A stretch of 35,655 nt of DNA from a bacterium. Its GTDB lineage: Bacteria > Bacteroidota > Ignavibacteria > Kapaibacteriales > UBA2268. The notes under the pieces were generated by a model. That model was not told the DNA's origin. It worked only from the letters and a program-made list of their open reading frames with translations, and ran no database searches. Location of the stretch: contig JAUIIX010000033.1 in NCBI GenBank assembly GCA_030431515.1, positions 1 to 35,655 of the forward strand, in the 5' to 3' direction. Position 1 is the stretch's first letter; each line of letters begins with the position of its first letter. Made by a program: the position numbers and the translations under genes. Below are positions 12,890 to 29,096 of the stretch, piece by piece.

Positions 12890-12947
12890 ATTTTTTAATA
12901 TAAAGTATTAATTTGAATCTTATTATACACAATTTTTGGAAAAGAGA

Positions 12948-13244
12948 ATGAATATTCCTGAAGATCCAGTTATTCAAGAGTTGATTGGAGAATTTGTTGA
13001 TACTTGGATACTTGATATTGACAATGACTTTAAAAGACTTGTAGAAACTAAAAATAGCGAGGACTTATATCGCCTGGCACACACTTTAAAAGGTTCATGT
13101 TTTCAATTTGGCTTAGATGATATTGCTCATTTAGGTATAGAATTGATGGATAAAGCCAAAGCAAAAGAGTGGGATATTGCTTTAACTTATGAACAACCAC
13201 TTCGAGAAAAATTTATTGAAGTGAGAAATTTTTTAAATAAATAA
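12948..13244 (+). CDS. Stand-alone histidine phosphotransfer (HPt) protein
   Basis: HPt domains shuttle phosphoryl groups between response-regulator receivers in multistep phosphorelays. The 98-residue protein is a single four-helix HPt domain with phospho-accepting H45 in RLAHTLKGSC and the following GLDDIAHLGIELMDKAK helix. I start it at ATG 12948, preceded by the purine-rich GGAAAAGAGA. An in-frame TTG at 12936 would add four residues but would bury this ribosome-binding sequence. No hybrid kinase or receiver protein is encoded nearby, so its phosphorelay partners are elsewhere. Confidence 0.88.
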   Translation: MNIPEDPVIQELIGEFVDTWILDIDNDFKRLVETKNSEDLYRLAHTLKGSCFQFGLDDIAHLGIELMDKAKAKEWDIALTYEQPLREKFIEVRNFLNK

Positions 13245-13256
13245 TATTGGGAAATT

Positions 13257-13736
13257 ATGAAAATTATTTTTACTATAGTGTTTATGTTTTTTATTTCTAT
13301 CTTAAACTTAAGTTCCAAAGATAGAATTACTGTATTACCATTTAGTAATTCAGATGGAAATCTTGAATATCAAATCTATTGCTATGATTTGCAGGACTCC
13401 TTATATAAAATGTTAGAAACTATTGATTCTGACAAATTTGAATTAGTACCTGTTTTGGAAGTAGAAAGTGTATTAGCTGAGTTAAACATTGACCCTTCTA
13501 ATCCACAATATCAATCTGACGTTTGGAAAGCATGTAAGATGTTAAAAGCTAATAAAGTTATAACAGGGACATTTAATTTTGAAGCTGGGAAGTTTTTGAT
13601 TAATGCCTATATCTATGATGTTAGGATGAAACTACCAAATCCAAAGTATCAAGCAAAAGATTTGTTCAAAGACCCTGAAAATATTTTTGAAGTAATTCAA
13701 GAGATTTTTGATAGTTTAAAACCAGCAATTGAATAA
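13257..13736 (+). CDS. Small exported protein with CsgG/FlgO-like N-terminal fold (tentative)
   Basis: This 159-residue protein has an N-terminal signal sequence (MKIIFTIVFMFFISILNLSS). It is followed by DRITVLPFSNSDGN, a helix, FELVPVLEVESVLAELNI, and a later segment MLKANKVITGTFNF. That order is typical of CsgG, FlgO or TolB-N-like periplasmic domains: an ivlPF strand, then an elvpr...ve..laeL strand-helix, then an a..vi.G strand. No lipobox cysteine is visible. It follows the HPt gene by 12 bases and probably shares its transcript. The fold is my inference from the pattern and the function is unknown. Confidence 0.6.
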   Translation: MKIIFTIVFMFFISILNLSSKDRITVLPFSNSDGNLEYQIYCYDLQDSLYKMLETIDSDKFELVPVLEVESVLAELNIDPSNPQYQSDVWKACKMLKANKVITGTFNFEAGKFLINAYIYDVRMKLPNPKYQAKDLFKDPENIFEVIQEIFDSLKPAIE

Positions 13737-13768
13737 TCAATAGTAATAATTAACAATAAAGGATAAAT

Positions 13769-13978
13769 ATGAAAAAGAATATGGGAAATATTGATAAAGT
13801 ATTAAGAATTATAGCAGCTGTTGTAATGTTGTCATTATATTTTATGAATATTGTTGAAGGAACTTTAGGGATTGTTTTAGTAGTTTTAAGTATTGTTTTT
13901 GTTGTAACAAGTTTGATAAATTTCTGTCCATTATATACTCTTTGTGGAATGAATACTTGCAAAATATCAAAAGACTAA
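13769..13978 (+). CDS. DUF2892 / YgaP-type transmembrane protein
   Basis: This 69-residue inner-membrane protein opens with MGNIDKVLRIIAAVVMLSLY and has two hydrophobic helices. It ends with the family signature FCPLYTLCGMNTCK, whose cysteines are typical of DUF2892 (YgaP-like) proteins. In E. coli YgaP this region anchors a rhodanese domain, but here it stands alone. The ribosome-binding site is AAAGGA, seven bases before ATG. The antisense frame over the same bases is a shadow. Role is unknown; membrane topology is clear. Confidence 0.85.
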   Translation: MKKNMGNIDKVLRIIAAVVMLSLYFMNIVEGTLGIVLVVLSIVFVVTSLINFCPLYTLCGMNTCKISKD

Positions 13979-14018
13979 ACTAAAACCAATTTTTTTTAAT
14001 TAAACAAGATGTTCGTTT

Positions 14019-14453
14019 GTGAGTGAATTTGAATTAGAATTTAAAAGAAATTTATTTATGAAGACATTAGTTTCGACTATGCTTCACATGGCTTTGATAG
14101 ACGGGGTTTATTTAGATTCTGAAAGAGATTACATTGAATCTGTAATAAATGCATATCCTGAATATCAAGGTCAGATTTATCATGCAATTGATGATTTTTA
14201 CCAATCTCAAATAAAAGAAGAATATATTTCTGATTTATTAAGAGATTGTCGTAAATATTTAGAAACAAGAGAATTAAAAGAATTAGTAAAGCATTCTTTT
14301 AAGGTTTTAGCTATTGATGGAAAAGTTTCCCAAGATGAAAAATTTTTAATTAAATCTTACTTATTGGCATTTGGTTTACCTTCCAATTATTTTGATAAAT
14401 TTATGGAAAAAATTGGAGACGATAATTCTATTTCACCAGAGTTGAAAAGTTGA
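14019..14453 (+). CDS. TerB-like helical protein
   Basis: This 144-residue all-helical cytoplasmic protein has the repeated acidic helix pattern of TerB/DjlA-type domains. The first copy is MLHMALIDGVYLDSERDYIESVI and the second HSFKVLAIDGKVSQDEKFLIKSYL, where the DGxxxxxE motifs form the putative metal-binding loops. Family members are associated with tellurite resistance and envelope stress, but their biochemistry is unclear. The start is GTG at 14019. An ATG at 14059 (MKTLVST) is a possible shorter start. The stop codon overlaps the TTG start of the transporter gene. Confidence 0.65.
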   Translation: MSEFELEFKRNLFMKTLVSTMLHMALIDGVYLDSERDYIESVINAYPEYQGQIYHAIDDFYQSQIKEEYISDLLRDCRKYLETRELKELVKHSFKVLAIDGKVSQDEKFLIKSYLLAFGLPSNYFDKFMEKIGDDNSISPELKS

Positions 14454-15346
14454 AAAAAGAAAACTTAGGTTTAATCTACGCAGGATTCACTTCTATTTTA
14501 TGGGGTTTTTTAGCTGTATTTCTAAAGTTTAGTTTAGTAGATTTAGATTCTATAACTATTGTTTGGTTCAGATTTTCTTTTGCATTTGTTGTATTATTTT
14601 CAATCCTGTATTTTAAGAAGAATTCTTCGATTTCCATTTTAAAAAAACCGCCAATTCTAATAATATTTGCAGGTATTGCTTTAGGATTCAATTACCTCTT
14701 TTTTATGTTAGGTTTAAATTATACTAATCCGACAATAACAAATATAGTTATACAAATCGGTCCTGTTTTATTAGCAGGAGTTGGAATTTATATTTATAAA
14801 GAAAAAGTAAGTTTAAAACAAGTTTTTGGATTTATATTTGTAATTTTTGGATTTATTTTGTTTTTATATGACCAAGTAAATAATGCTTCCTTTATATATA
14901 AAGATTTGAATTTAGGATTGGTTCTGATTATAATTGCTGCAGTTTCTTGGGTTTTATATGCATCTTTCCAAAAAAGACTTAGTAAAGATTATGAGCCACA
15001 ACAATTAAATTTGATTATTTACTTAATACCCATGATTATGTTTGCTCCATTTGCTAATTTTGGTAGTTTTCTAAATCTAAATCAATCTTCAACATTAGTA
15101 TTATTATTTTTAGGTGTCAATACTTTGCTAGCTTATGGTTTTATAGGTGAAGCATTAAAATATGCTCCTGCAAATAAAGTTAGTGTAATTATTACTTTAA
15201 ATCCAATTATTACTATTACAACTATGGCTATTTTAGACAAATTTAATTATGTATGGTTAGGTAAAGAAGCTACTTCCTTATTTGGCTATATTGGAGCAAT
15301 TCTTGTTATTTTAGGTGCAATATTAGCAATTTATAAAGGAAAATAG
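14450..15346 (+). CDS. EamA/DMT-family transporter
   Basis: This 298-residue inner-membrane protein has about ten hydrophobic helices arranged as two EamA repeats. Markers include GLIYAGFTSILWGFLAVFLK at the N-terminus, NYTNPTITNIVIQIGPVLLA at the end of the first repeat, and ITLNPIITITTMAIL in the second. DMT transporters export amino acids, sugars or other metabolites; the substrate cannot be read from sequence. Translation appears to start at TTG 14450, overlapping the TerB stop as TTGA. The next gene starts at GTG overlapping this stop, so TerB, transporter and propeller protein are coupled. Confidence 0.88.
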   Translation: MKKENLGLIYAGFTSILWGFLAVFLKFSLVDLDSITIVWFRFSFAFVVLFSILYFKKNSSISILKKPPILIIFAGIALGFNYLFFMLGLNYTNPTITNIVIQIGPVLLAGVGIYIYKEKVSLKQVFGFIFVIFGFILFLYDQVNNASFIYKDLNLGLVLIIIAAVSWVLYASFQKRLSKDYEPQQLNLIIYLIPMIMFAPFANFGSFLNLNQSSTLVLLFLGVNTLLAYGFIGEALKYAPANKVSVIITLNPIITITTMAILDKFNYVWLGKEATSLFGYIGAILVILGAILAIYKGK

Positions 15347-16386
15347 TGTATATCTATTTAATAATATTAAATGTTTTATTTGGACAAGTTGAATTTGAGA
15401 ATCCAATTTCGAAGGGTAAATTGACACAAACAAATTTAAAAGAAATTTCTGGTTTGGAGAGAAGTAGTTTTCATGATATTATTTGGTCTCATAATGACTC
15501 TGGTGGAAAAGGAATTATATATGGATTAAACGATTCTGGAAAAATTATTTGTAATTTAATTTTGAAAGATATTGTTAATAGAGATTGGGAAGATATAAGT
15601 TATGGGTTTATAGAAGGCAAGAATTATATCTTTGTTGGTGATATTGGAGATAATGATAAAACATATCAAACAAAGTATATTTATTATTTTGAAGAACCAC
15701 TTAACTTGAAAGATACAATAATAATTAATGATGTAAAAAGAATTGAATTCAAATATCCTAGTTCAAATTATGATAGTGAATGTTTAATGTTTGATCCTAT
15801 TAGTAAAGATTTAATAGTAATCTCTAAAAGGGAAACTAATGAAAAAGTATTTTCTATAAGCTATCCTTATAATAACAATGATGTAGTTATTGCTGAATAC
15901 AAGACAGAATTGAAAATAGGTTCGAGCGATAATTTATTAAGCTGGGTTACAGCAGGCGATATTTCAGCAGATGGTAATCATATATTAATTAAGAATTATA
16001 CTAATGTTTATTACTGGAAAAGAGGTACAGATTTATATAATACTTTAAATGGTTCAGGTCAAGATATTGTAAATTACAAATTAGCAAGTGAACCACAAGG
16101 TGAATCTATTTGTTGGGAAAATAATATTAGTGGATTTTATACAGTAAGCGAAGAAGTCTTTGGTATTACTCCTGAAATAAAATATTTCAAAAAGAAAGAA
16201 ATAGTAAATGGGGTTGATAAGAAGTCATTAAATGATATAAAGTTTGATGATGTAAATTTTAGATTTTATGATTTAATTGGAAATTTATATTCTTATAATG
16301 AATATTTGAATTCTCAAAATAATATGTTTATAGTATTAGATTTGAAAAACTTCAAATCTATAAAACTATTAAGGCATAAATTTTGA
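15346..16386 (+). CDS. Exported beta-propeller-like protein
   Basis: This 346-residue protein has a short signal-like N-terminus (MYIYLIILNVLFGQ). It carries a propeller signature common in uncharacterised secreted proteins: ISGLERSSFHDIIWSHNDSG, then YGLNDSGKI, RDWEDISYG, and IFVGDIGDNDKTYQ. Later segments, DSECLMFDPISKDLIVISKR and SEPQGESICWE, fit further blades. The C-terminus (FRFYDLIGNLYSYNEYL to KSIKLLRHKF) resembles a shortened T9SS sorting domain, which would make it secreted or surface-bound. The GTG start at 15346 shares one base with the transporter stop. Ligand and activity are unknown. Confidence 0.6.
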   Translation: MYIYLIILNVLFGQVEFENPISKGKLTQTNLKEISGLERSSFHDIIWSHNDSGGKGIIYGLNDSGKIICNLILKDIVNRDWEDISYGFIEGKNYIFVGDIGDNDKTYQTKYIYYFEEPLNLKDTIIINDVKRIEFKYPSSNYDSECLMFDPISKDLIVISKRETNEKVFSISYPYNNNDVVIAEYKTELKIGSSDNLLSWVTAGDISADGNHILIKNYTNVYYWKRGTDLYNTLNGSGQDIVNYKLASEPQGESICWENNISGFYTVSEEVFGITPEIKYFKKKEIVNGVDKKSLNDIKFDDVNFRFYDLIGNLYSYNEYLNSQNNMFIVLDLKNFKSIKLLRHKF

Positions 16387-16418
16387 TTGATGAATATTTT
16401 TTAGATAATTGAGTAAAA

Positions 16419-18662
16419 ATGTTTAAAAAAATAAGATATTGGGCTAAAAATTCAGATACATTCGAGGTAATGGCGATTGTTGCTATCATAATTGGTGCAA
16501 TAATTATGGTTACTTCTTTTTGGCTTGGTTCTGTAAATGATATTAAATTAAAAGATGCAACTGCTAACATAGTTGATTTAAGTGAATTTATTGGTGGTTT
16601 AGTAGGTTCATTGTGGTCATTAGCAGGGGTTTTGTTATTTTACGCTTCCCTATCAAGTCAAAAAGAAGACTTAGAAAGACAAAAAGAACTACTTGTAAAA
16701 CAAATCGATGAAGTTGTAGCTCAAACGAAAGAATTTAGAATTCAGAATGAAATGGCTAAAGAACAGAAGAATGAAGAAACTTTCTTTCAACTTCTTAGAT
16801 TTCACAGTGAGATTATTTCAACAATTACAATCGAACAACAAGAAGTAGATTTTGTTACAGGTGAGAATGTTAGTAAAAATATTGAAGGTAGAAAAGCTTT
16901 TGTTGAATATTATGATATTTATAAAAGATTCTTTCAAGAAGCAGCTGAGATGACGACAAGCCAAGATGAAGATAGTTTAAGTAAAATTTTTGATAAAGCA
17001 TATAATTCATTCTACTTAGAATATCAAGCAGATTTAGGTCACTACTTTAGGAATCTTTATAACATAATATTCTTTATTGATAGTTTGAAAAAAACTCAAC
17101 ATACCTTCTATTTTGGACTATTAATGGCTCAATTATCAAACTATGAATTAACTTTATTATTTTTTCATTGTCTTAGATCAACAAGTAAAGACTTTAAAGC
17201 ATTAGTTGAAAAATATGCAATATTAGATCAAGTCCCTAAAGATGAAGTAACTACTATGGCTCATACATTATATGATCCTGGAGCATTTGGTGAAAGTGGT
17301 TTTGGTTCTGGAGATATTATAGAAGATGAGGATGATGGATTAGATGAAAGTGGATTAATATCCTCAGAAGAAACGGATTCTATATTAAGTAAATTTAACT
17401 TACCTAATATGTATAGCGAACCTGATGAAGTTGATCTAAACACTAATATTAGTAGTGAAAAAGCTGATTCTGCTTTAGGTTCTATGGATGATATTTTAAG
17501 TAAACTTAAAAAAATATCATCTGAAAAATTTCCTGAAATGGATGAAATTGATGAAATAACAGATGAATTTGAATTAGAAGAGGATAGTCCTTTACAAAAA
17601 TTAAAAGATAAATCAACTATTAAAAAAGAGCAAGCTAAGTTAGAAGAAGAGAAAGATGATTCTGAAAGTTTAAGTTTTGAAGATTTTTTTGATGATGATT
17701 TTGGTGGTGATTCCGCAGACGATACTAATAATGAAATAATCGATATTGAACAAATTGAGAAAATTGAATCCCAAGGTATTGACAATTTATTAAAAAAACA
17801 AAAAGAAGAATCAGTTGAAGAAAAGTCAAAGATAGATTTAGATGATGATTTTGGTGATTTATGGAATGATGAAAGTGAATTTGATGATATTGAAAAATCA
17901 GATGATGAATTAGAAATTCTTAAAAGTAGTATAGACAGTACTTTAGATGATGAGTTTGCTGAATTAAAATCAAAAGTTTCAAACAATGAAGATAATGATA
18001 TAGATTCTAAATTTAATGATTTAAAAAGTAAATTAGATTCTGATATGGATTTAGATAATATGCTTTTCAATAAAGATGCTGATATTGAAAATGATATTAA
18101 AGATAAAGCTACTAATTTAAAAGAAGAAAATATTTTTGAAGAAGATATTGACTTAGATAAAGTAAAAAATAAGTTTAATATTAATTTTGATGAATTAGAA
18201 AGTAAAAGTGAAAGTATTGATGACTTTAGCTTTGATGATACTGAAGAGTTGATTGATGAGAACGAAATAAGTAATGTAGAAGATTATCAGACATCGGCTA
18301 CAGAAGATTTTGATAGTGAATTTGATGATATGTTTAGTGATGAAGAATCTATTGAATTTGAGGTAGAAGATACATTAGATAGTGAAAATTATGACTCTAT
18401 TAAAGATAAATTTAAAAATAATTTAGAAGAAATAGATAAAGAAAATAATTTAGAAGAAGTGATAAATGAAGTTGATTCTGATTCTGTTTCTGAAGAAAAT
18501 AATATTTTAGAAGACTTGTTAGAAAACGAAACTGATGAAGAAACAAAAAAAGTAGTTGATGAAAAGAAAGATAAACAAAGCAAAAAAATTAAAATCAAAG
18601 TGAATAAAAAGAAAAATGATAAAGGTAAAGATGGCTCTGGATTTTTATCTAAATTAAAATAA
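16419..18662 (+). CDS. putAbiC-like membrane protein fused to a long acidic disordered tail
   Basis: This 747-residue protein has two N-terminal transmembrane helices (about 17-37 and 57-79). A coiled coil (residues 80-115, QKEDLERQKELLVKQIDEVV) leads into a helical domain to about residue 285. Motifs there resemble the putative phage abortive infection family: NEETFFQLLRFHSEII, GRKAFVEYYD, DLGHYFRNLYNIIFFID, LMAQLSNYELTLLFFHCL and FKALVEKYAIL. After that, about 430 residues are extremely rich in D, E, S and K. They contain recurring motifs such as LDDDFGDLW, LDDEFAELKSKV, DSKFNDLKSKL and DMFSDEE, and end in a basic stretch closing with GFLSKLK. The tail is predicted to be cytoplasmic and disordered. 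Family members are proposed phage-defence proteins; the tail is not part of the family as I know it. Confidence 0.7.
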   Translation: MFKKIRYWAKNSDTFEVMAIVAIIIGAIIMVTSFWLGSVNDIKLKDATANIVDLSEFIGGLVGSLWSLAGVLLFYASLSSQKEDLERQKELLVKQIDEVVAQTKEFRIQNEMAKEQKNEETFFQLLRFHSEIISTITIEQQEVDFVTGENVSKNIEGRKAFVEYYDIYKRFFQEAAEMTTSQDEDSLSKIFDKAYNSFYLEYQADLGHYFRNLYNIIFFIDSLKKTQHTFYFGLLMAQLSNYELTLLFFHCLRSTSKDFKALVEKYAILDQVPKDEVTTMAHTLYDPGAFGESGFGSGDIIEDEDDGLDESGLISSEETDSILSKFNLPNMYSEPDEVDLNTNISSEKADSALGSMDDILSKLKKISSEKFPEMDEIDEITDEFELEEDSPLQKLKDKSTIKKEQAKLEEEKDDSESLSFEDFFDDDFGGDSADDTNNEIIDIEQIEKIESQGIDNLLKKQKEESVEEKSKIDLDDDFGDLWNDESEFDDIEKSDDELEILKSSIDSTLDDEFAELKSKVSNNEDNDIDSKFNDLKSKLDSDMDLDNMLFNKDADIENDIKDKATNLKEENIFEEDIDLDKVKNKFNINFDELESKSESIDDFSFDDTEELIDENEISNVEDYQTSATEDFDSEFDDMFSDEESIEFEVEDTLDSENYDSIKDKFKNNLEEIDKENNLEEVINEVDSDSVSEENNILEDLLENETDEETKKVVDEKKDKQSKKIKIKVNKKKNDKGKDGSGFLSKLK

Positions 18663-18733
18663 TTTTTAAAGCAATGATAAATTTTGTAATTTGTGCTTTT
18701 AATTTTTAAATTTTAAAAAATTAAATACTGAAT

Positions 18734-19603
18734 ATGGCAATTATAGATGCAATTAAGAAAAATCAAGATTTAGCATCTCTTCCACATGTAGCTGGAAGAG
18801 TTTTGAAATTAATTCAAAATAAAAATGCAGAACTTAATGAAATAGCTAAACTTATAGAAGCAGACCCAATTCTAACAATGAAGTTGTTAAGAGTTGCTAA
18901 CTCCCCTATTTTTGCTACAAGGAATGAAATAAGGTCAATCCAACATGCATTAATGCTATTAGGAATGAAAAGAATTTCAAATATTGTACTTTCAGTTTCA
19001 ATTTATTCTAAGTTTTTTATCAATGCTCATAAAGATGCCGCTATTTTAATGGAAAGATTTTTTCAACATTCTTATCTAACTGGAATGACTTCTAAAACTC
19101 TAACACAGATTTTAAGAAAGAATTTTGAAGATAATGAATTTGTTGGTGGTTTACTTCATGATATTGGTAAAATGGCTATGTTGCAAGTCCATCCTAAAGA
19201 GTATTCTTTAGTCAGACAATTAATTTCACAAGAAGGGCTAAATGAACTTGCTGCTGAAAAAGAGGTATTTAACGAAAATCATATTGAAGTTGGACTGCAA
19301 ATGGCTCATTTGTGGAAATTACCAGAAGAAATTCATAGAATTATTGCATTTTACAAATTTCCTGCTCAAAACGATGCCTCAATTGATTTAGTTGCAATAG
19401 TTAGCTTTGCAGATGCATTTACTAAGATTAGAGCTAATTTAATTAATCCTGATGAAGATGAGTTTAATTATGGTAGTATAGAAGCTTGGAGAGTGTTAGT
19501 TAAACAAATGCCAGAACTAAGGAAAATAAATGTTAAGAAATTAACGTCACATTTGGATCATACATTAAGAAAATCACCAGACAACTTTGATTTATTGAAA
19601 TAA
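18734..19603 (+). CDS. HDOD domain protein
   Basis: This 289-residue cytoplasmic protein is a single HDOD domain, a catalytically degenerate HD-like signalling module. Hallmarks are LPHVAGRVLKLIQNKNAEL, IEADPILTMKLLRVANSP, IRSIQHALMLLGMKRISNIV and FVGGLLHDIGKMAM. An HD-like pair remains in LLHDIGK. HDOD proteins in other bacteria act in chemotaxis, c-di-GMP or stress signalling, usually by protein contact. The gene starts at ATG 18734, 71 bases after the putAbiC-like gene, and is followed within one base by trmB. No partner domain is fused. Confidence 0.9.
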   Translation: MAIIDAIKKNQDLASLPHVAGRVLKLIQNKNAELNEIAKLIEADPILTMKLLRVANSPIFATRNEIRSIQHALMLLGMKRISNIVLSVSIYSKFFINAHKDAAILMERFFQHSYLTGMTSKTLTQILRKNFEDNEFVGGLLHDIGKMAMLQVHPKEYSLVRQLISQEGLNELAAEKEVFNENHIEVGLQMAHLWKLPEEIHRIIAFYKFPAQNDASIDLVAIVSFADAFTKIRANLINPDEDEFNYGSIEAWRVLVKQMPELRKINVKKLTSHLDHTLRKSPDNFDLLK

Positions 19604-19604
19604 T

Positions 19605-20285
19605 ATGGCAATTGATTATAATAAATATCCTTTTGATGTAAGAATAAGACATCATGTATCTTCAAATTTATATTTCCCTCTGAACAAACAATCTATAAAA
19701 ATTACAGAAACATATCCCCCATTAGTTGAAAATGTTAATTGGGCAGAATACTTTGGAGATTCAAAAGCTCCTGAAATTCTTGATATTGGGTGTGGAATGG
19801 GTAAATTTCTTTTAGATTATTCATTAGAATTAAAAAATCAAAATATTTTAGGAATTGAAGTTCGCATTCACCCTGTTAATTGGATTAATGAAGTAATTAA
19901 AGGTGAGAAATTACCTAATGTTCATGCTCTCTGGTATTCTGTTGTTAATAGAATTAATTTTATTGAAACTGAAAGTATTGAGAAGATTTTTTATTTCTTT
20001 CCTGACCCTTGGTTTAAAGAAAAACATAAGAAAAGAAGAGCTTTCAAATTAGAATTTATTGAAGATTGTTACAGAGTATTAAAAAAGGGTGGAACTTTAT
20101 ACCTTCAAACAGACATTGAAGATGTTTATAATCACCAATTGAAACTTCTTAATAAGTTTAATAGTGATAATCAAAAATTTAGAATATATACGCCTGATAG
20201 TTGGGATTTTCCAAAAACTGATCAAGAAATACATTGTATTAAAAAGAGTTTTCCATATTGGCGACTTTGTGTTGAAAAAATATAA
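19605..20285 (+). CDS. trmB: tRNA (guanine-N7-)-methyltransferase
   Basis: TrmB uses S-adenosylmethionine to methylate N7 of G46 in the variable loop of tRNAs. The 226-residue length is typical. The SAM-binding motif is ILDIGCGMGKFLLDYS, followed by NILGIEVRIHP. The tRNA-specific FFPDPWFKEKHKKRRAF signature, with conserved lysine and arginine residues, is intact. GGTLYLQTDIEDVY and the C-terminal aromatic and charged segment complete the fold. The ATG lies one base after the HDOD stop (TAAT-ATG), so the two are probably co-translated. Confidence 0.95.
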   Translation: MAIDYNKYPFDVRIRHHVSSNLYFPLNKQSIKITETYPPLVENVNWAEYFGDSKAPEILDIGCGMGKFLLDYSLELKNQNILGIEVRIHPVNWINEVIKGEKLPNVHALWYSVVNRINFIETESIEKIFYFFPDPWFKEKHKKRRAFKLEFIEDCYRVLKKGGTLYLQTDIEDVYNHQLKLLNKFNSDNQKFRIYTPDSWDFPKTDQEIHCIKKSFPYWRLCVEKI

Positions 20286-20299
20286 TTCGTGAGTAAATA

Positions 20300-20770
20300 A
20301 TGAATATTACAAAATTATCTATCCTTGGATACTGGGATTTAGTAAAATTTGAGGCAATTGCCGATGATGGAGATATTTTCCTTCCTTTTGGTCAGAATGT
20401 AAGAGGATTACTTCATTATGCTGATAATGAAATAATGTCTGCTCAATTAGGTTCTACAATGAGAGCAAATTTTAAAAATGAAGACTTTAGATTTGGAGAA
20501 GATGACGAAATAAGAGAAGCATTTAATGGCTTCATCTCATATTTTGGTAAGTATTCGATTAACGAGAATAGAAATTATATTATTCATGAAATTGATTTAT
20601 CTTTGTTTCCAAATTGGATGAATAACAGAGTAAAAAGATTTTATGAATTTGATAATGGTCATTTGCTATTGAAAGCACCTCAATTAGAATATTTTGGAAT
20701 AAAAAGAACCCCTATTCTTACTTGGAAAAAAATAGAGGATTTAAAATCTAGTTATAGATGGCATTCTTAA
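20300..20770 (+). CDS. Lipocalin-like domain protein
   Basis: This 156-residue cytoplasmic protein matches the lipocalin-like domain pattern (Lipocalin_5 type). It has LSILGYWDLVKFEAIADDGD, PFGQNVRGLLHYADNEIMSA, FNGFISYFGKYSINENRN, HEIDLSLFPNWMNNRVKRFY and HLLLKAPQLEYFG. Such proteins often appear as small-ligand or hydroxysteroid-type binding proteins, and the ligand here is not predictable. It follows trmB by 14 bases, and its last four bases overlap the convergent oligopeptidase gene. Confidence 0.8.
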   Translation: MNITKLSILGYWDLVKFEAIADDGDIFLPFGQNVRGLLHYADNEIMSAQLGSTMRANFKNEDFRFGEDDEIREAFNGFISYFGKYSINENRNYIIHEIDLSLFPNWMNNRVKRFYEFDNGHLLLKAPQLEYFGIKRTPILTWKKIEDLKSSYRWHS

Positions 20771-24206: not shown

Positions 24207-27200
24207 TTAATTGATTACAACAAATTTTTCGTAAAAGGTATATATCTGCATTGTCTTTTCATCAGATATATTGATTTTAACAAGGTACACTCCGTTATTT
24301 AACTTGTGTTTAATTGGGATTTTAAGTTTATCTGCTATATATTGATTATTTATAGAATAAGAATTAAATCCATTCATATCAAATACATCAATAGTTATGT
24401 TAGAATTATTTGGAATAAAGATGTCTAAAGAAAGATTTTCACTTATTGGATTTGGCGATATTTTTTCTACAAAAGGTAAATTATGAGATTTATATAGACG
24501 AGTACCACCAATTTGACAAAGGTCTATTACTCTTAATAGTCCATTTGTAAAATCTATAATTTTTGCTTCGTCATTTTCAATAAATTCTATATCTGATATA
24601 TTTAACTCAGAAGTTGAGTCATTCCCCCAAAGAACAGTATTTGGAAAAATAGTCCATTTATTATTCTTTAACTCATCGAAGTTTAATGTATAATTTTCAT
24701 ACATTAAGTCATTGTTGTATAGCAAATCATTATTTGAGGTTTTTAATAAACTTGGATTGTAGGATAGTTTAAATTTTAATCCTTGTTTCTCTTTAAAATC
24801 AAATTTATCATAACTGATTAAGTTTATATTTAAAGGAACTTCATCACCTACATTTGAATTAATATCATCTATCGAAATACTTAATTGAGGAATATCACCC
24901 AAGTAAAACTCTAAAAGAATTGAATCAGATTTACCACATTCATCTTCAATTAAAAAATCTACTATTCTTGGAGTCAATTCTGAATATTCAATGTAAAATG
25001 TAGAACTTGAATTAATCGGAGTAGATAGTGGTTGAATATCAGTAATTTTAACTCCTTCAAAAATATAACTGATATAATTCCAATTAAGTTCAGTATTCCC
25101 TAAATTTTCTACTACAAAATATGACTCACTTTTTTGACTACTTTTTATTTCAACTTGTTTGTAAGTTTCAAAAATATTAAATCTTACATCTTCTCTATCT
25201 ATTTCTAAATCAATATTATATTCAATTCCATTAATCTCAAATGTTATAATTTCAGAATAAAAACCATATTTAGTTAATTTTAAATTTAATAAAATACTTT
25301 CTTGAATATTTGATTTTAAAGTAATGGGATAAGTTATATTATTAGTAATTTCAAGAGTGCTTGTAATTTTTGATATTTCAATATTTTCTGAATTAAGATT
25401 TTTGATTTGTAAGTTTAAATTTAATATACTATCGCATTTACTTTTAAGAGAATAACTCTTTTGATATTCAATATTATTTGAATTCTGCATCATTTTTGAA
25501 CTTAATTTAATGCTTTGTTGTATATTGCAATTATCAACTAAATCAAACAGTTCAATCTCTTGATTATTAGTTAAATTAGTGTATTCAAATATAAATGTTG
25601 AACTTTCATTTTTATTTATTTCTATATTTGTGATATTAATTAATTTGAAGTCAGAATTATTAATAGAATAAGGTAATTGGTAGTCCCATTTAATTAATTT
25701 ATCACCTGTATTAGTAACTACTAACTCTTGGTTAACTTGCTGATTTAATTGATTAACTTCAAAAATTAATTCACTTGTACTATAATTATACTCTGTTAAG
25801 TTATTTATGAAGTTTATACTATCTTTAACAATTATATAATTATTATCATTTGATTTAAATTGAAAGTCTAAATCAAAGGTTCCAGAATTATTTTCATTTA
25901 TAGTTGCAATTATTATTTCTTCGGAAGAAGGAGAAATCTCAAAATTAAACTTATCAAAATTAATATTATTTGCAGATAAATCAGATATTTGTAAAATAGA
26001 TTTACCGTTATTTCTAAATTTTATTTCAAAAGTTTTATTTAGATTACATTCAGAAATCAAAGTATCTTGAAAAGTAAATTCTAATTCAGGTTTGATTCCA
26101 ATTCCAGATAAACTAATTCTTGAAGGTGCATTTTCTTCATTAAAATATATTAAAGCTATTGAGTTAGTCCTTAGGGCTTGTTTTGTTTCAAATTCAAATA
26201 CAAGCAATTTTGTATTCTGATTATTAGATTTTAAAGTTGAGGATGCACCACCTTGTATAATTTTATAAGAAATTAAATCTGGACCTACTATTCTAATACT
26301 ATCAACTATTATGTCATTAATACTTGAATTAGAAATCTCTAATTGCTTTCTTATTGGAGTATTCAATTCTACTTCTCCAAAATCTAAATTATAATCTTTT
26401 ATACCATTTGAGTATCCGATACCAGATATACTTGTGGAATACTTATTTAATTCTGTGAAGATCTCAATCCTTGAATTATAATTATTTTCACTTTTTGGTG
26501 TAAAAGATACTTCTAATTTTAAGTATTTATCAGATTCTAAAGAAATATTTTTAATAGATTGTATAGTAAAGACATTATTAAAATCATTTAATAATCTAAT
26601 TGAATCAATTTTAACAGGAATTAAAGAAGTAATTTTAATGAAATTAGTTATGCTATCTACTTTTGTTCTATTTATTAATACCTTTCCGAAATCAAAACCA
26701 TTAATATCAATATTTGCATTTACTAAGCTAAAATTAGAATTTGATGTAGTTCTAAATTCAGGATATTGATCTACAGCATTAAATTTTACTGTTTGACCAC
26801 TATTTTTACCAAAAGAACTAACTGCAATTCTTGAGTTATCAGGACTCCAACATAGATCATTATTTCGCCATGAAGATTCACTATTTATATCATATTTCTC
26901 ACTATAATCATCTGCACTATAAATATATGTTTTTCCTCTATCACCAGTAAAAGTAAACAATTTACTATCAAGATTTGCTCTTACTTTACTTAATGTTTCG
27001 TTTACTTTAAATGAATAAACTTCTGCACCAAGATTAGAAGATGAAATAATTAATTGATTATTAAATGCTTGAGAACTCACGGATACAAGTCTATCATTAT
27101 CAAGCCAATCTAAAGATGTAACTTCTCCTCTATGAACAGGATATTTAGAAACAGGAAGGTAATTACTTGCAAACAATACTGAAATACTTGTATCACCTAA

Positions 27201-29096
27201 AGCGATGGCAATTTTACTCCCATTAGGTGAAAATCTTATATCATTGATACTTTTTTGAGATACTTTTTCAGTTTTAATAATAGATAAGTCAGAGGAATTC
27301 CAAACCTTTAAGTTTCCATATTTATCACCTGACAATATTTTTGATCCATCTGGACTCCATTCTATAACACTTACTTCATCTGGATATGCTTGAATGCTAT
27401 CTACGGGAGTATCATTATTATCTAACCATAATTTAATTTTCCCATCACTTCCAGCGCTTGCAAACCTAATTGCATCTGGTGACCACTCAACATCAGTAAC
27501 AACAGGATGAGCATATATTTTCTTAGTTTGAGAATGATTAAATCCACTAACAAAACGAATATATCCATCATTTCCACCAAGAATTAAATTCAAACCACTC
27601 TTCTGCCAAGATATAGAAGTGTTATTTATCGAATCTGTATTTATAACTTTGTATTCATAAGCAGACGAGTCTGACAATTTTGTTATTCTTATCAAACATT
27701 CATTACTAGTTATAAATGGATATTTATATTTATAACTATACCCGGAATATTGTTTTACAACTTCTTGCCATTTATTCCCATTATCAGAAGAAAATTCAAT
27801 AAGCAATTTATCATCTGGGTAATTAGCTTGCCATTTAATAAGCGAATCAGCCCCTCTATAATAAATTTCACCTCCATTTGGTTCAATGATATCAATGTAT
27901 GATTCATTTGCTCCTTCTGGCTTCCCACCACTTGCAAAGAAAGTATTATCCTGACATACATTTGAGTTAATAGTAAATTCGCTAAATTGAAATCCTTCTT
28001 CATCGTATTCAAAATCAATAAATAAACTGATTTCAGTATCTTTAGGAATTGTTATTGGATAATTAATACCAGTTGGTAAAACTATCTTAAATTTAGAATT
28101 AGAAGAAACAATTGAATCTATAACTAAAGTATCAACTCTTGCTTCTAACTTTAATATTCTTCTACCACTTGTATTTATTTTTGTATCATTGAAGGAATAG
28201 AATTGACTGTTAGGATAATAAAATGAAGAAAGTAAATTTTCTTCAACTTTATATTTTGAACTATTGTTAGAATTAGAGTAATTATAGTTTACAGTTCTTT
28301 CTATATCACAATTATTACTAAACCATTCTATCGAACAAGTATTTTCAATTTCAGATAATTTATAAATTGTTTGATAAATATTAACTATTTGTTTTAAGGT
28401 AGTAACGTTATCATAAATTATACCACCTGTGTTATTACTAACTTCTTCAAGAAACTTAGGAACTTCATTAAATAATACAATAGAATAAACAATAGCATTT
28501 ATTTTTTTTGCTTCATCAATAACTTCTTGATACTTACCTGTAGATACTCCATCAGTTAGAAAAATTATTATAGGTTGATTCTTTGCTCTTTTTGCTAAAG
28601 CTATTGCTCCATTATCCTTATTTAAAAAAGCTTTTTCAAAATTAGTTCCACCCAATAAAATCATGCTTCCTAATGAAGTTAAAAGTAAATTCTTATCAGA
28701 AGTAAAATCATTGACCAATAAGGCGTCATCAGAAAATCCAGAAATAGCAACTTCACTTTTGCTATTGATTAATTCGATTAAACTATTAGCTCCTTGAATA
28801 GCAAGATTAAAAGATATTCCTTTCATTGATAATGATAAGTCCATAGAAAGTATAGTAGATGTTGCTTTCTTTTCAGGTATATTACCACATTCTAAAGAAA
28901 TTACTTCTCTTTCAATACCATTTTCAAATAAATTAAAGTAGTCTTTATTTGGTGAATATATAACATTACCATTTACATCTAATAATAAAATATTACTTTT
29001 TATTAAAGGATAATTTGAAGCATCTATATTAAATAGTTGTACGCTTTGAGAATAAACAAAGTTAGTTAAAGTTATTATTAGTAAAAATATTTTCAA
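24207..29096 (-). CDS. Giant secreted protein: VWA, WD40, Hydin/ASH-like repeats, T9SS C-terminal domain
   Basis: This 1629-residue exported protein has a signal peptide (MKIFLLIITLTNFVYS). A von Willebrand A domain follows with MIDAS residues D86-x-S88-x-S90 (SMDLSLS), TNFEKAF and FLTDGVS. An Ig-like PNGGE segment (YIDIIEPNGGEIYYRG) leads to seven or so WD40 blades at residues 520-770 (DVEWSPDAIRFASAGSDG, VIEWSPDGSKILSG). About 700 residues of repeated beta-sandwich modules of choice-of-anchor or ASH/Hydin type come next (DFGKVLINRTKVDSI, DYNLDFGEVELNTPIRKQL). A cohesin-like domain (about 1400-1500) precedes a T9SS sorting domain (ISPNPISENLSL, NNGVYLVKINIS). WD40 repeats in a secreted bacterial protein are uncommon. 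It may bind surface ligands or sense them by scaffold assembly; its partners are unknown. Confidence 0.85.
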   Translation of the reverse strand: MKIFLLIITLTNFVYSQSVQLFNIDASNYPLIKSNILLLDVNGNVIYSPNKDYFNLFENGIEREVISLECGNIPEKKATSTILSMDLSLSMKGISFNLAIQGANSLIELINSKSEVAISGFSDDALLVNDFTSDKNLLLTSLGSMILLGGTNFEKAFLNKDNGAIALAKRAKNQPIIIFLTDGVSTGKYQEVIDEAKKINAIVYSIVLFNEVPKFLEEVSNNTGGIIYDNVTTLKQIVNIYQTIYKLSEIENTCSIEWFSNNCDIERTVNYNYSNSNNSSKYKVEENLLSSFYYPNSQFYSFNDTKINTSGRRILKLEARVDTLVIDSIVSSNSKFKIVLPTGINYPITIPKDTEISLFIDFEYDEEGFQFSEFTINSNVCQDNTFFASGGKPEGANESYIDIIEPNGGEIYYRGADSLIKWQANYPDDKLLIEFSSDNGNKWQEVVKQYSGYSYKYKYPFITSNECLIRITKLSDSSAYEYKVINTDSINNTSISWQKSGLNLILGGNDGYIRFVSGFNHSQTKKIYAHPVVTDVEWSPDAIRFASAGSDGKIKLWLDNNDTPVDSIQAYPDEVSVIEWSPDGSKILSGDKYGNLKVWNSSDLSIIKTEKVSQKSINDIRFSPNGSKIAIALGDTSISVLFASNYLPVSKYPVHRGEVTSLDWLDNDRLVSVSSQAFNNQLIISSSNLGAEVYSFKVNETLSKVRANLDSKLFTFTGDRGKTYIYSADDYSEKYDINSESSWRNNDLCWSPDNSRIAVSSFGKNSGQTVKFNAVDQYPEFRTTSNSNFSLVNANIDINGFDFGKVLINRTKVDSITNFIKITSLIPVKIDSIRLLNDFNNVFTIQSIKNISLESDKYLKLEVSFTPKSENNYNSRIEIFTELNKYSTSISGIGYSNGIKDYNLDFGEVELNTPIRKQLEISNSSINDIIVDSIRIVGPDLISYKIIQGGASSTLKSNNQNTKLLVFEFETKQALRTNSIALIYFNEENAPSRISLSGIGIKPELEFTFQDTLISECNLNKTFEIKFRNNGKSILQISDLSANNINFDKFNFEISPSSEEIIIATINENNSGTFDLDFQFKSNDNNYIIVKDSINFINNLTEYNYSTSELIFEVNQLNQQVNQELVVTNTGDKLIKWDYQLPYSINNSDFKLINITNIEINKNESSTFIFEYTNLTNNQEIELFDLVDNCNIQQSIKLSSKMMQNSNNIEYQKSYSLKSKCDSILNLNLQIKNLNSENIEISKITSTLEITNNITYPITLKSNIQESILLNLKLTKYGFYSEIITFEINGIEYNIDLEIDREDVRFNIFETYKQVEIKSSQKSESYFVVENLGNTELNWNYISYIFEGVKITDIQPLSTPINSSSTFYIEYSELTPRIVDFLIEDECGKSDSILLEFYLGDIPQLSISIDDINSNVGDEVPLNINLISYDKFDFKEKQGLKFKLSYNPSLLKTSNNDLLYNNDLMYENYTLNFDELKNNKWTIFPNTVLWGNDSTSELNISDIEFIENDEAKIIDFTNGLLRVIDLCQIGGTRLYKSHNLPFVEKISPNPISENLSLDIFIPNNSNITIDVFDMNGFNSYSINNQYIADKLKIPIKHKLNNGVYLVKINISDEKTMQIYTFYEKFVVIN

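What the first reader, a model, noticed from the sequence alone, without database searches (positions are those of the whole stretch)
16419..18662. putAbiC-like membrane module fused to a ~430-residue acidic repeat tail
The first 285 residues carry two transmembrane helices, a coiled coil and motifs resembling the putative phage abortive infection family. They are followed by a very long D/E/S/K-rich tail with recurring short motifs (LDDDFGDLW, LDDEFAELKSKV, DSKFNDLKSKL, DSIKDKFKNNL) and a basic end closing with GFLSKLK. I do not know this fusion in the family. The tail could recruit partners, bind a basic protein or nucleic-acid machinery, or act as an entropic brush. An antiphage or envelope-signalling role is inference.
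Basis: partly seen in the sequence, partly recalled or inferred. Interest (0 to 1): 0.65.

Follow-up and report, generated by a model that had tools for sequence, protein, structure and literature searches.

The report
Membrane protein with long acidic tail
A membrane protein of the 'putative phage abortive infection' family has, in a few uncultured bacteria, grown a long floppy negatively charged tail and sits beside a regulatory gene rather than among defence genes, so it looks more like a signalling scaffold than a phage-defence gene.

Summary
ORF 16419-18662 encodes 747 residues: a two-helix membrane anchor running into a coiled helix, a helical domain matching Pfam putAbiC (66.3 bits, cut-off 22), then 457 strongly acidic (net -100), predictedly disordered residues with a basic end. 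The fusion is rare but not unique: of 17 genomes of its family with a homologue, 4 have a tail, 12 stop near residue 290 and one holds a fragment. Tails differ in length and repeat unit; three of four share an [IF][LM]x[KR][LFM] motif, and the GFLSKLK end is one copy. The genome belongs to the Kapabacteria group.

The defence reading is not supported for this clade. An HDOD regulator gene follows in nine genomes, tailed and tail-less alike (one across a contig break), and flanking genes give hardly any defence hits. Relatives in other Bacteroidota do adjoin Gabija, bSEFIR and Old-like genes. Best reading: a membrane scaffold working with the HDOD protein, the tail being a flexible recruiting arm. 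HDOD proteins beside tails are less acidic than those beside tail-less genes; this is post hoc, with two independent contrasts. New variant of a known kind.

The parts
16419..18662 (+). putAbiC-type membrane protein with acidic tail, 747 aa
   Evidence: ORF; PF16872 match
16467..16529 (+). first membrane helix (about residues 17-37)
   Evidence: hydrophobic stretch read from the sequence; helix 14-42 in the model
16590..16652 (+). second membrane helix (about residues 58-78)
   Evidence: hydrophobic stretch read from the sequence; within helix 48-135 of the model
16653..16823 (+). long charged coiled helix (residues 79-135) running out of the second membrane helix
   Evidence: model; Q/E/R-rich pattern in alignment A1
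17019..17246 (+). putAbiC Pfam match (residues 201-276), holds the LGHYFRN motif
17289..18659 (+). acidic disordered tail (residues 291-747, net charge -100)
   Evidence: composition and charge-hydropathy; absent from tail-less homologues
17379..17396 (+). tail motif copy 1, SILSKF
17490..17507 (+). tail motif copy 2, DILSKL; aligned with DILGRL in the same-genus tail
18585..18659 (+). basic C-terminal stretch ending in tail motif copy 3 (GFLSKL at 18639-18656)
   Evidence: the same-genus homologue ends GKGFLSKM
18734..19603 (+). HDOD regulator gene, 71 bases downstream, same strand
   Evidence: PF08668 E 5.7e-53; pair conserved
15346..16386 (+). upstream gene (346 aa) that recurs before the pair in G017 and genus g24; the G017 homologue has a type IX secretion sorting domain
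   Evidence: blastp E 2e-49 to 9e-45; Por_Secre_tail in the L058 homologue, no Pfam match in the L059 one

Best explanation
This is a chromosomal, apparently vertically inherited membrane protein that works together with the HDOD regulator encoded just downstream. The two membrane helices anchor it with both ends in the cytosol; the long coiled helix and putAbiC domain probably form an oligomeric cytosolic platform. In part of the clade the platform gained a long, disordered, acidic arm that grows by in-frame tandem duplication, mostly carries short [IF][LM]x[KR][LFM] docking motifs and ends in a basic peptide. The arm most likely captures and concentrates a partner at the membrane, first candidate the HDOD protein, so that membrane state and HDOD output are coupled. 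Shown: gene, domain match, tail, its spread, the conserved pair, lack of defence context. Inferred: topology (from the basic N-terminus), oligomerisation, partner binding, signalling role.
For: HDOD directly downstream on the same strand (11-139 bases) in the window and in 7 of the 16 genome-contig loci that belong to this family, plus G017, whose tail is cut by a contig end and whose HDOD follows the tail's other end on a second contig starting inside the same repeats: nine genomes. No other gene is shared by all of these loci. None of the putAbiC loci outside the family listed has an HDOD gene in the held flank. The pair probably predates the tail (trees). Tails in 4 genomes, with islands shared by window and G001 and motif enrichment in 3 of 4. 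HDOD beside tails: net charge +3, +2, 0, -2; beside tail-less genes: -7, -7, -9, -9, -10; unpaired in the same subfamily: 28 of 29 at -5 or below. HDOD proteins affect motility in other bacteria (PMC11004494, passages seen).
Against: The charge link was noticed first and then extended; it amounts to two independent contrasts (G016 against G006; window, G001, G017 against g24, whose bootstrap had not settled). One unpaired HDOD in G016 is +7, and 16 more distant unpaired HDODs range from -8 to +6, so neutral HDODs are not rare. Tail-less proteins keep the HDOD neighbour, so the tail is not needed for the pair as such; and 7 of the 16 family loci have a full-length homologue and no HDOD in the held flank. 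The G016 tail lacks the motif. The window/G001 match at the tail's end is no better than shuffles. No interaction could be modelled. The core keeps the family's near-invariant residues E119, H208 and Y209, so a defence-type activity is not excluded.
Confidence: 0.42

Rival explanations
1. It is a phage-defence (abortive infection) effector: the membrane-anchored putAbiC domain responds to infection and damages the membrane or arrests the cell, the acidic tail being a regulatory or sensing arm.
For: PF16872 match. Relatives in other Bacteroidota adjoin GajA/GajB (L084), bSEFIR (L085) and an Old/AriA-like gene (L067), or lie one gene from RT_UG17 (L078). A relative is carried by an inovirus and the core matches phrog_8999 at 2.4e-31. 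Near-invariant core residues are kept.
Against: No PADLOC hit to the protein itself. Flanks at loci of this family: 8 PADLOC families, each in one of 72 proteins, six of them from two proteins. Stable pairing with HDOD across several genera is unlike mobile defence genes. The family name is an annotation; no paper in the library holds 'putAbiC' or 'PF16872'.
Confidence: 0.2
2. The tail is a near-neutral or purely physical acidic spacer (entropic brush or solubility tag) that expands and shrinks by tandem duplication and has no specific partner.
For: Tail length varies from 235 to at least 457 aa and repeat units differ: 144-bp and 69-bp units in G017, 63-bp in G016, none strong in the window. 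It is missing in genus g24, which falls among tailed species. Between window and G001 only the start of the tail aligns significantly, and that match includes the last core residues.
Against: Islands such as DDILxxLKK shared by window and G001; motif enrichment in three tails; HDOD charge contrast.
Confidence: 0.22
3. The tail binds another basic partner (nucleic-acid machinery, ribosome, or a cell-envelope protein) rather than HDOD, using the motif as docking peptide.
For: Net charge -100 with hydrophobic clusters along it; HDOD pairing is kept without the tail.
Against: No candidate partner found; a tail-only search of the own genome found only this gene. The HDOD charge contrast favours HDOD.
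Confidence: 0.16

Closest known systems
putAbiC, Pfam PF16872 (putative phage abortive infection protein)
   Same: Same C-terminal helical domain with LGHYFRN motif, same two-helix anchor and coiled helix as relatives in Bacteroidota and others; plasmid relatives in Vibrio and Falsirhodobacter carry this name
   Different: 457-residue acidic tail; HDOD gene as neighbour; hardly any defence neighbours in this family
HDOD domain proteins (PF08668), for example GsmR, CJ0248 and SadB as described in PMC11004494 (passages seen)
   Same: The downstream partner is a full-length HDOD protein
   Different: Pairing with a putAbiC membrane protein was not mentioned in the little I saw on HDOD; the HD residues are kept in most partners but altered in some (LLHKIG, LLYQIG)
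Proteins with a disordered linker and a C-terminal docking peptide, such as FtsZ or SSB (recalled, not tested)
   Same: Folded core, long disordered linker, short terminal peptide
   Different: No sequence relation tested or claimed

Membership tests
putAbiC (PF16872) | Score above the Pfam gathering cut-off | tested here: met
   66.3 bits against 22, positions 1-79 of 80
putAbiC (PF16872) | N-terminal membrane anchor and coiled helix as in relatives | tested here: met
   Alignment of 45 sequences and model
putAbiC (PF16872) | Ends soon after the putAbiC domain, as most relatives do (not a Pfam criterion) | tested here: not met
   457 further residues; most homologues end within about 50 residues, eight loci outside this family have 79-172 extra
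Phage abortive infection system | Reduces phage infection | not testable with these tools
   needs phage plating
Phage abortive infection system | Lies among defence genes | tested here: not met
   72 flanking proteins at loci of this family: 8 PADLOC families, each in one protein; mad3/mad8 and IetA hits come from a 939-aa and a 705-aa protein that I read as UvrA-like and FtsH-like (reading by eye). Window neighbours: only TrmB better than 1e-10, to mad2 at 2.1e-12
Lactococcal AbiC | Sequence or fold relation to AbiC itself | not tested
   No AbiC sequence was compared
Known solved fold | Significant match of the cytosolic domain to a solved structure | tested here: inconclusive
   0 Foldseek matches at E 0.001 or less for core and for domain alone; best VIA Z 5.7, rmsd 5.8, 96 aligned for the domain
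HDOD (PF08668), downstream gene | Score above the Pfam cut-off | tested here: met
   179.8 bits against 22.9

The most novel reading that the evidence does not exclude
A defence-family membrane protein was recruited into a resident signalling module with an HDOD regulator, and in part of the clade the two co-evolved electrostatically: the membrane protein grew a multivalent acidic arm by tandem duplication while its HDOD partner lost negative charge, giving a membrane-tethered capture device of a kind I know from neither family.
Probability: 0.22. Interest if true: 0.66.

Novelty: new variant of a known kind. Interest (0 to 1): 0.45.

Why it matters
putAbiC carries a phage-defence name, and the paper library that I searched has no text with that name or its accession. 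A clade where it forms a stable two-gene unit with an HDOD regulator suggests that the family also has a resident, non-defence role, and gives a testable partner for two domains of unclear mechanism. The tail is a clear natural example of a bacterial disordered region growing by tandem duplication.

Tried and rejected
Artefact: rejected; the frame is open for 747 codons in AT-rich DNA and tails recur in other genomes. The antisense ORF 17261-18070 (269 aa, Ser-rich) mirrors the acidic tail and was not treated as a gene.

Single-copy oddity: rejected, four tailed homologues. Tail as a mobile module in the same genome: a tail-only search found only itself. Other proteins ending in the same peptide: a degenerate DNA pattern gave the gene itself and one place whose codons include a stop; the backward-read control gave 2 and 2.

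Fold relatives: Foldseek against solved structures and viral models gave no match at E 0.001 or below; VIA-align best rows were MscK at Z 8.1, rmsd 4.5, 97 aligned (residues 10-106 only) and a Habc domain at Z 5.7, rmsd 5.8, 96 aligned; I read these as common helix arrangements. Profile search of solved-structure sequences: 0 at E 1 or below. The first genome-contig scan with the single core gave no relative; the scan with an alignment gave 61 loci. Paper searches for putAbiC and PF16872 gave nothing; searches on HDOD, AbiC, Kapabacteria and disordered tethers gave listings of which I looked into one paper only (passages).

Rows dropped: for flanking PADLOC counts I gave 72 of the 99 listed proteins of the family loci (99 came from 15 of the 16 loci; the near-identical L060-L062 were then left out, and the fragment locus L113 was not used) and 115 of 122 listed proteins from 15 of the 45 other loci, chosen mostly from the better-matching ones; ORFs under 90 aa, over 1300 aa or cut by a locus end had been left out before. 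The 166 families found in the second set are inflated by many overlapping models of the same system. In the charge table one distant HDOD row (L147) was scored on an 18-residue stretch for the matched-part column and the rank test; the counts I quote use whole proteins.

Full report
Observation. The ORF at 16419-18662 is real, 747 codons from ATG to stop. Pfam gives one match, PF16872 putAbiC at residues 201-276, E 3.6e-18, 66.3 bits against a cut-off of 22; NCBIfam and PADLOC give none for this protein at E 0.1. An AlphaFold2 model of residues 1-300 on 45 sequences has mean pLDDT 88 and pTM 0.66: helix 14-42, a single helix 48-135 that holds the second membrane segment and the coiled stretch, two strands at 137-156 and a helical domain to about 290; the block 291-300 falls to 47. 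The domain alone models at pLDDT 92.6, pTM 0.86. The tail (291-747) is 34% D+E, 12% K+R, net -100, without Cys or His, on the disordered side of the charge-hydropathy line.

Who has it. The own genome has a second, tail-less putAbiC of 303 aa. In the family, 17 of 54 genomes have a match at E 1e-10 or better; in the order, 17 of 123 at 1e-20, all of them from this family; a weaker one at 5.6e-5 exists elsewhere in the order. Four have a tail: the window, G001 of the same genus (525 aa), G016 (722 aa) and G017 (699 aa, cut at the contig end). The G017 tail continues on another contig for 165 residues, starting inside the same repeats and ending in a stop, with the HDOD gene 116 bases further; how far the two pieces overlap is not known. 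Twelve others have open frames of 294-328 aa and G077 only a fragment of 127. Named records place the group in Candidatus Kapabacteria / Kapaibacterium and related 'Ignavibacteriae' or 'Bacteroidetes' MAGs. A tree of 20 cores, rooted at the midpoint, puts window and G001 together (100/97), with G017 (95/90), then tail-less genus g24 (97/93), then tailed G016 (100/99): one gain and one loss, or two gains.

The tails. Lengths 457 (window), 235 (G001), 430 (G016) and 404 and 165 for the two G017 pieces; net charges -100, -34, -65, -68 and -27. G017 has 144-bp x 3.4 and 69-bp x 4.9 tandem repeats, G016 63-bp x 3.5; the window has only weak ones. The pattern [DNSEQG][ILVMF][LMIF]x[KR][LFM], written after inspection, occurs 3, 2, 0, 8 and 2 times in window, G001, G016 and the two G017 pieces, against 0.25, 0.11, 0.25, 0.14 and 0.07 in shuffles. 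Window and G001 align from residue 281 on, thus including the last ten core residues, at E 7e-9 and 42.0 bits, with DDILxxLKK in the tail part; their ends (GxGFLSK) align at E 0.034 and 21.2 bits. Shuffled G001 tails reached 25.8 bits, so the end match alone is not significant; other pairs do not align significantly. By eye all four tails end in a basic stretch.

The neighbour. An HDOD gene follows directly on the same strand in the window and in 7 of the 16 genome-contig loci that are genomes of this family (L057, L059-L063, L065; identity with the G handles); L058 is the cut G017 gene, completed by L126; seven have none in the held flank (L064, L066, L068-L072), nor has the fragment locus L113. 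That makes nine genomes with the pair, four tailed and five tail-less. In G002 the HDOD gene sits at a contig edge and cannot be judged. No HDOD was found at the loci outside the family listed. Among genes of the paired loci only putAbiC and HDOD are shared by all; the 346-aa upstream gene is shared by the window, G017 and g24, and its G017 homologue carries a Por_Secre_tail domain. HDOD genes are common in the family (49 of 54 genomes), so the pair uses one HDOD among several.

Charge contrast. I saw that HDOD proteins beside tails were less acidic and then extended the sample to 55 HDOD proteins. Beside tails: +3, +2, 0, -2. Beside tail-less putAbiC: -7, -7, -9, -9, -10. The G002 one, pairing unknown: +4 over 280 residues. 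Unpaired in the same subfamily (E below 1e-70): 28 of 29 at -5 or below, one at +7 (in G016). More distant unpaired: 16, from -8 to +6. A rank test gave p 0.007, but rows are related; on the HDOD tree of 29 rows there are only two independent contrasts, both in the predicted direction. I treat this as a lead.

Defence context. Of 72 flanking proteins at 12 loci of this family, PADLOC at E 1e-10 gave 8 families, each in one protein. When I looked at ten such flanking proteins singly, the four IetA hits came from one 705-aa protein at L064 and mad3/mad8 from one 939-aa protein at L065; I read these by eye as FtsH-like and UvrA-like, thus cross-hits. The subtilase and ZorB hits were not traced. 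For 115 flanking proteins from 15 loci outside the family PADLOC gave 166 families, many of them overlapping models. Of ten of these proteins looked at singly, five had hits at 1e-20: GajA and GajB directly downstream of putAbiC in Sunxiuqinia (L084), bSEFIR directly upstream in an uncultured Tenacibaculum (L085), an Old/AriA-like gene directly upstream in Aquimarina (L067), and RT_UG17 one gene upstream in Maribacter luteus (L078). So the wider family does occur beside defence genes, and a tail-less relative is carried by an inovirus, but the family of the window does not show this. Because the core keeps the near-invariant residues, I cannot exclude a defence-type activity.

Mechanism. Shown: a membrane-anchored core by sequence and model, an acidic arm, conserved pairing with HDOD, tandem repeats in two of the arms. 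Inferred: N-in/C-in topology (basic N-terminus), oligomerisation through the coiled helix, and recruitment of HDOD or another partner by the arm. HDOD is described as a domain of unknown function with roles in regulation and motility (PMC11004494, passages seen by 'find'). I commit to a membrane scaffold that works with HDOD at 0.42.

Novelty. Membership in putAbiC is met by score; the tail and the HDOD pairing are departures. No paper in the library holds the words putAbiC or PF16872. I call it a new variant of a known kind.

Noticed in passing
L084 7860-12654, L085 6488-8915, L067 5991-8894, L078 5558-8843: Tail-less putAbiC genes in other Bacteroidota lie directly beside GajA/GajB, bSEFIR and an Old/AriA-like gene, or one gene from RT_UG17, as if putAbiC were an unlisted companion of several defence systems.
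   Followed up: partly
L179 3001-3627 (MT188664.1): An inovirus of Vibrio parahaemolyticus carries a tail-less putAbiC relative annotated as hypothetical protein, perhaps a superinfection or defence cargo gene.
   Followed up: no
L081, L089, L099, L105, L109, L111: Another set of putAbiC homologues has a further 109-172 residues at the C-terminus; not examined.
   Followed up: no
window 12936-20770: A same-strand run of genes around the finding: Hpt domain, unknown, TerB-like, EamA transporter, unknown, putAbiC, HDOD, TrmB-like methyltransferase, Lipocalin_5.
   Followed up: partly
window 24207-29096 (-): A 1629-aa protein with VWA, WD40-type propeller and secretion-tail matches.
   Followed up: no
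G016:C56:40327-41196 (L135): An unpaired HDOD in a tailed genome is unusually basic (net +7), the one exception in its subfamily.
   Followed up: partly
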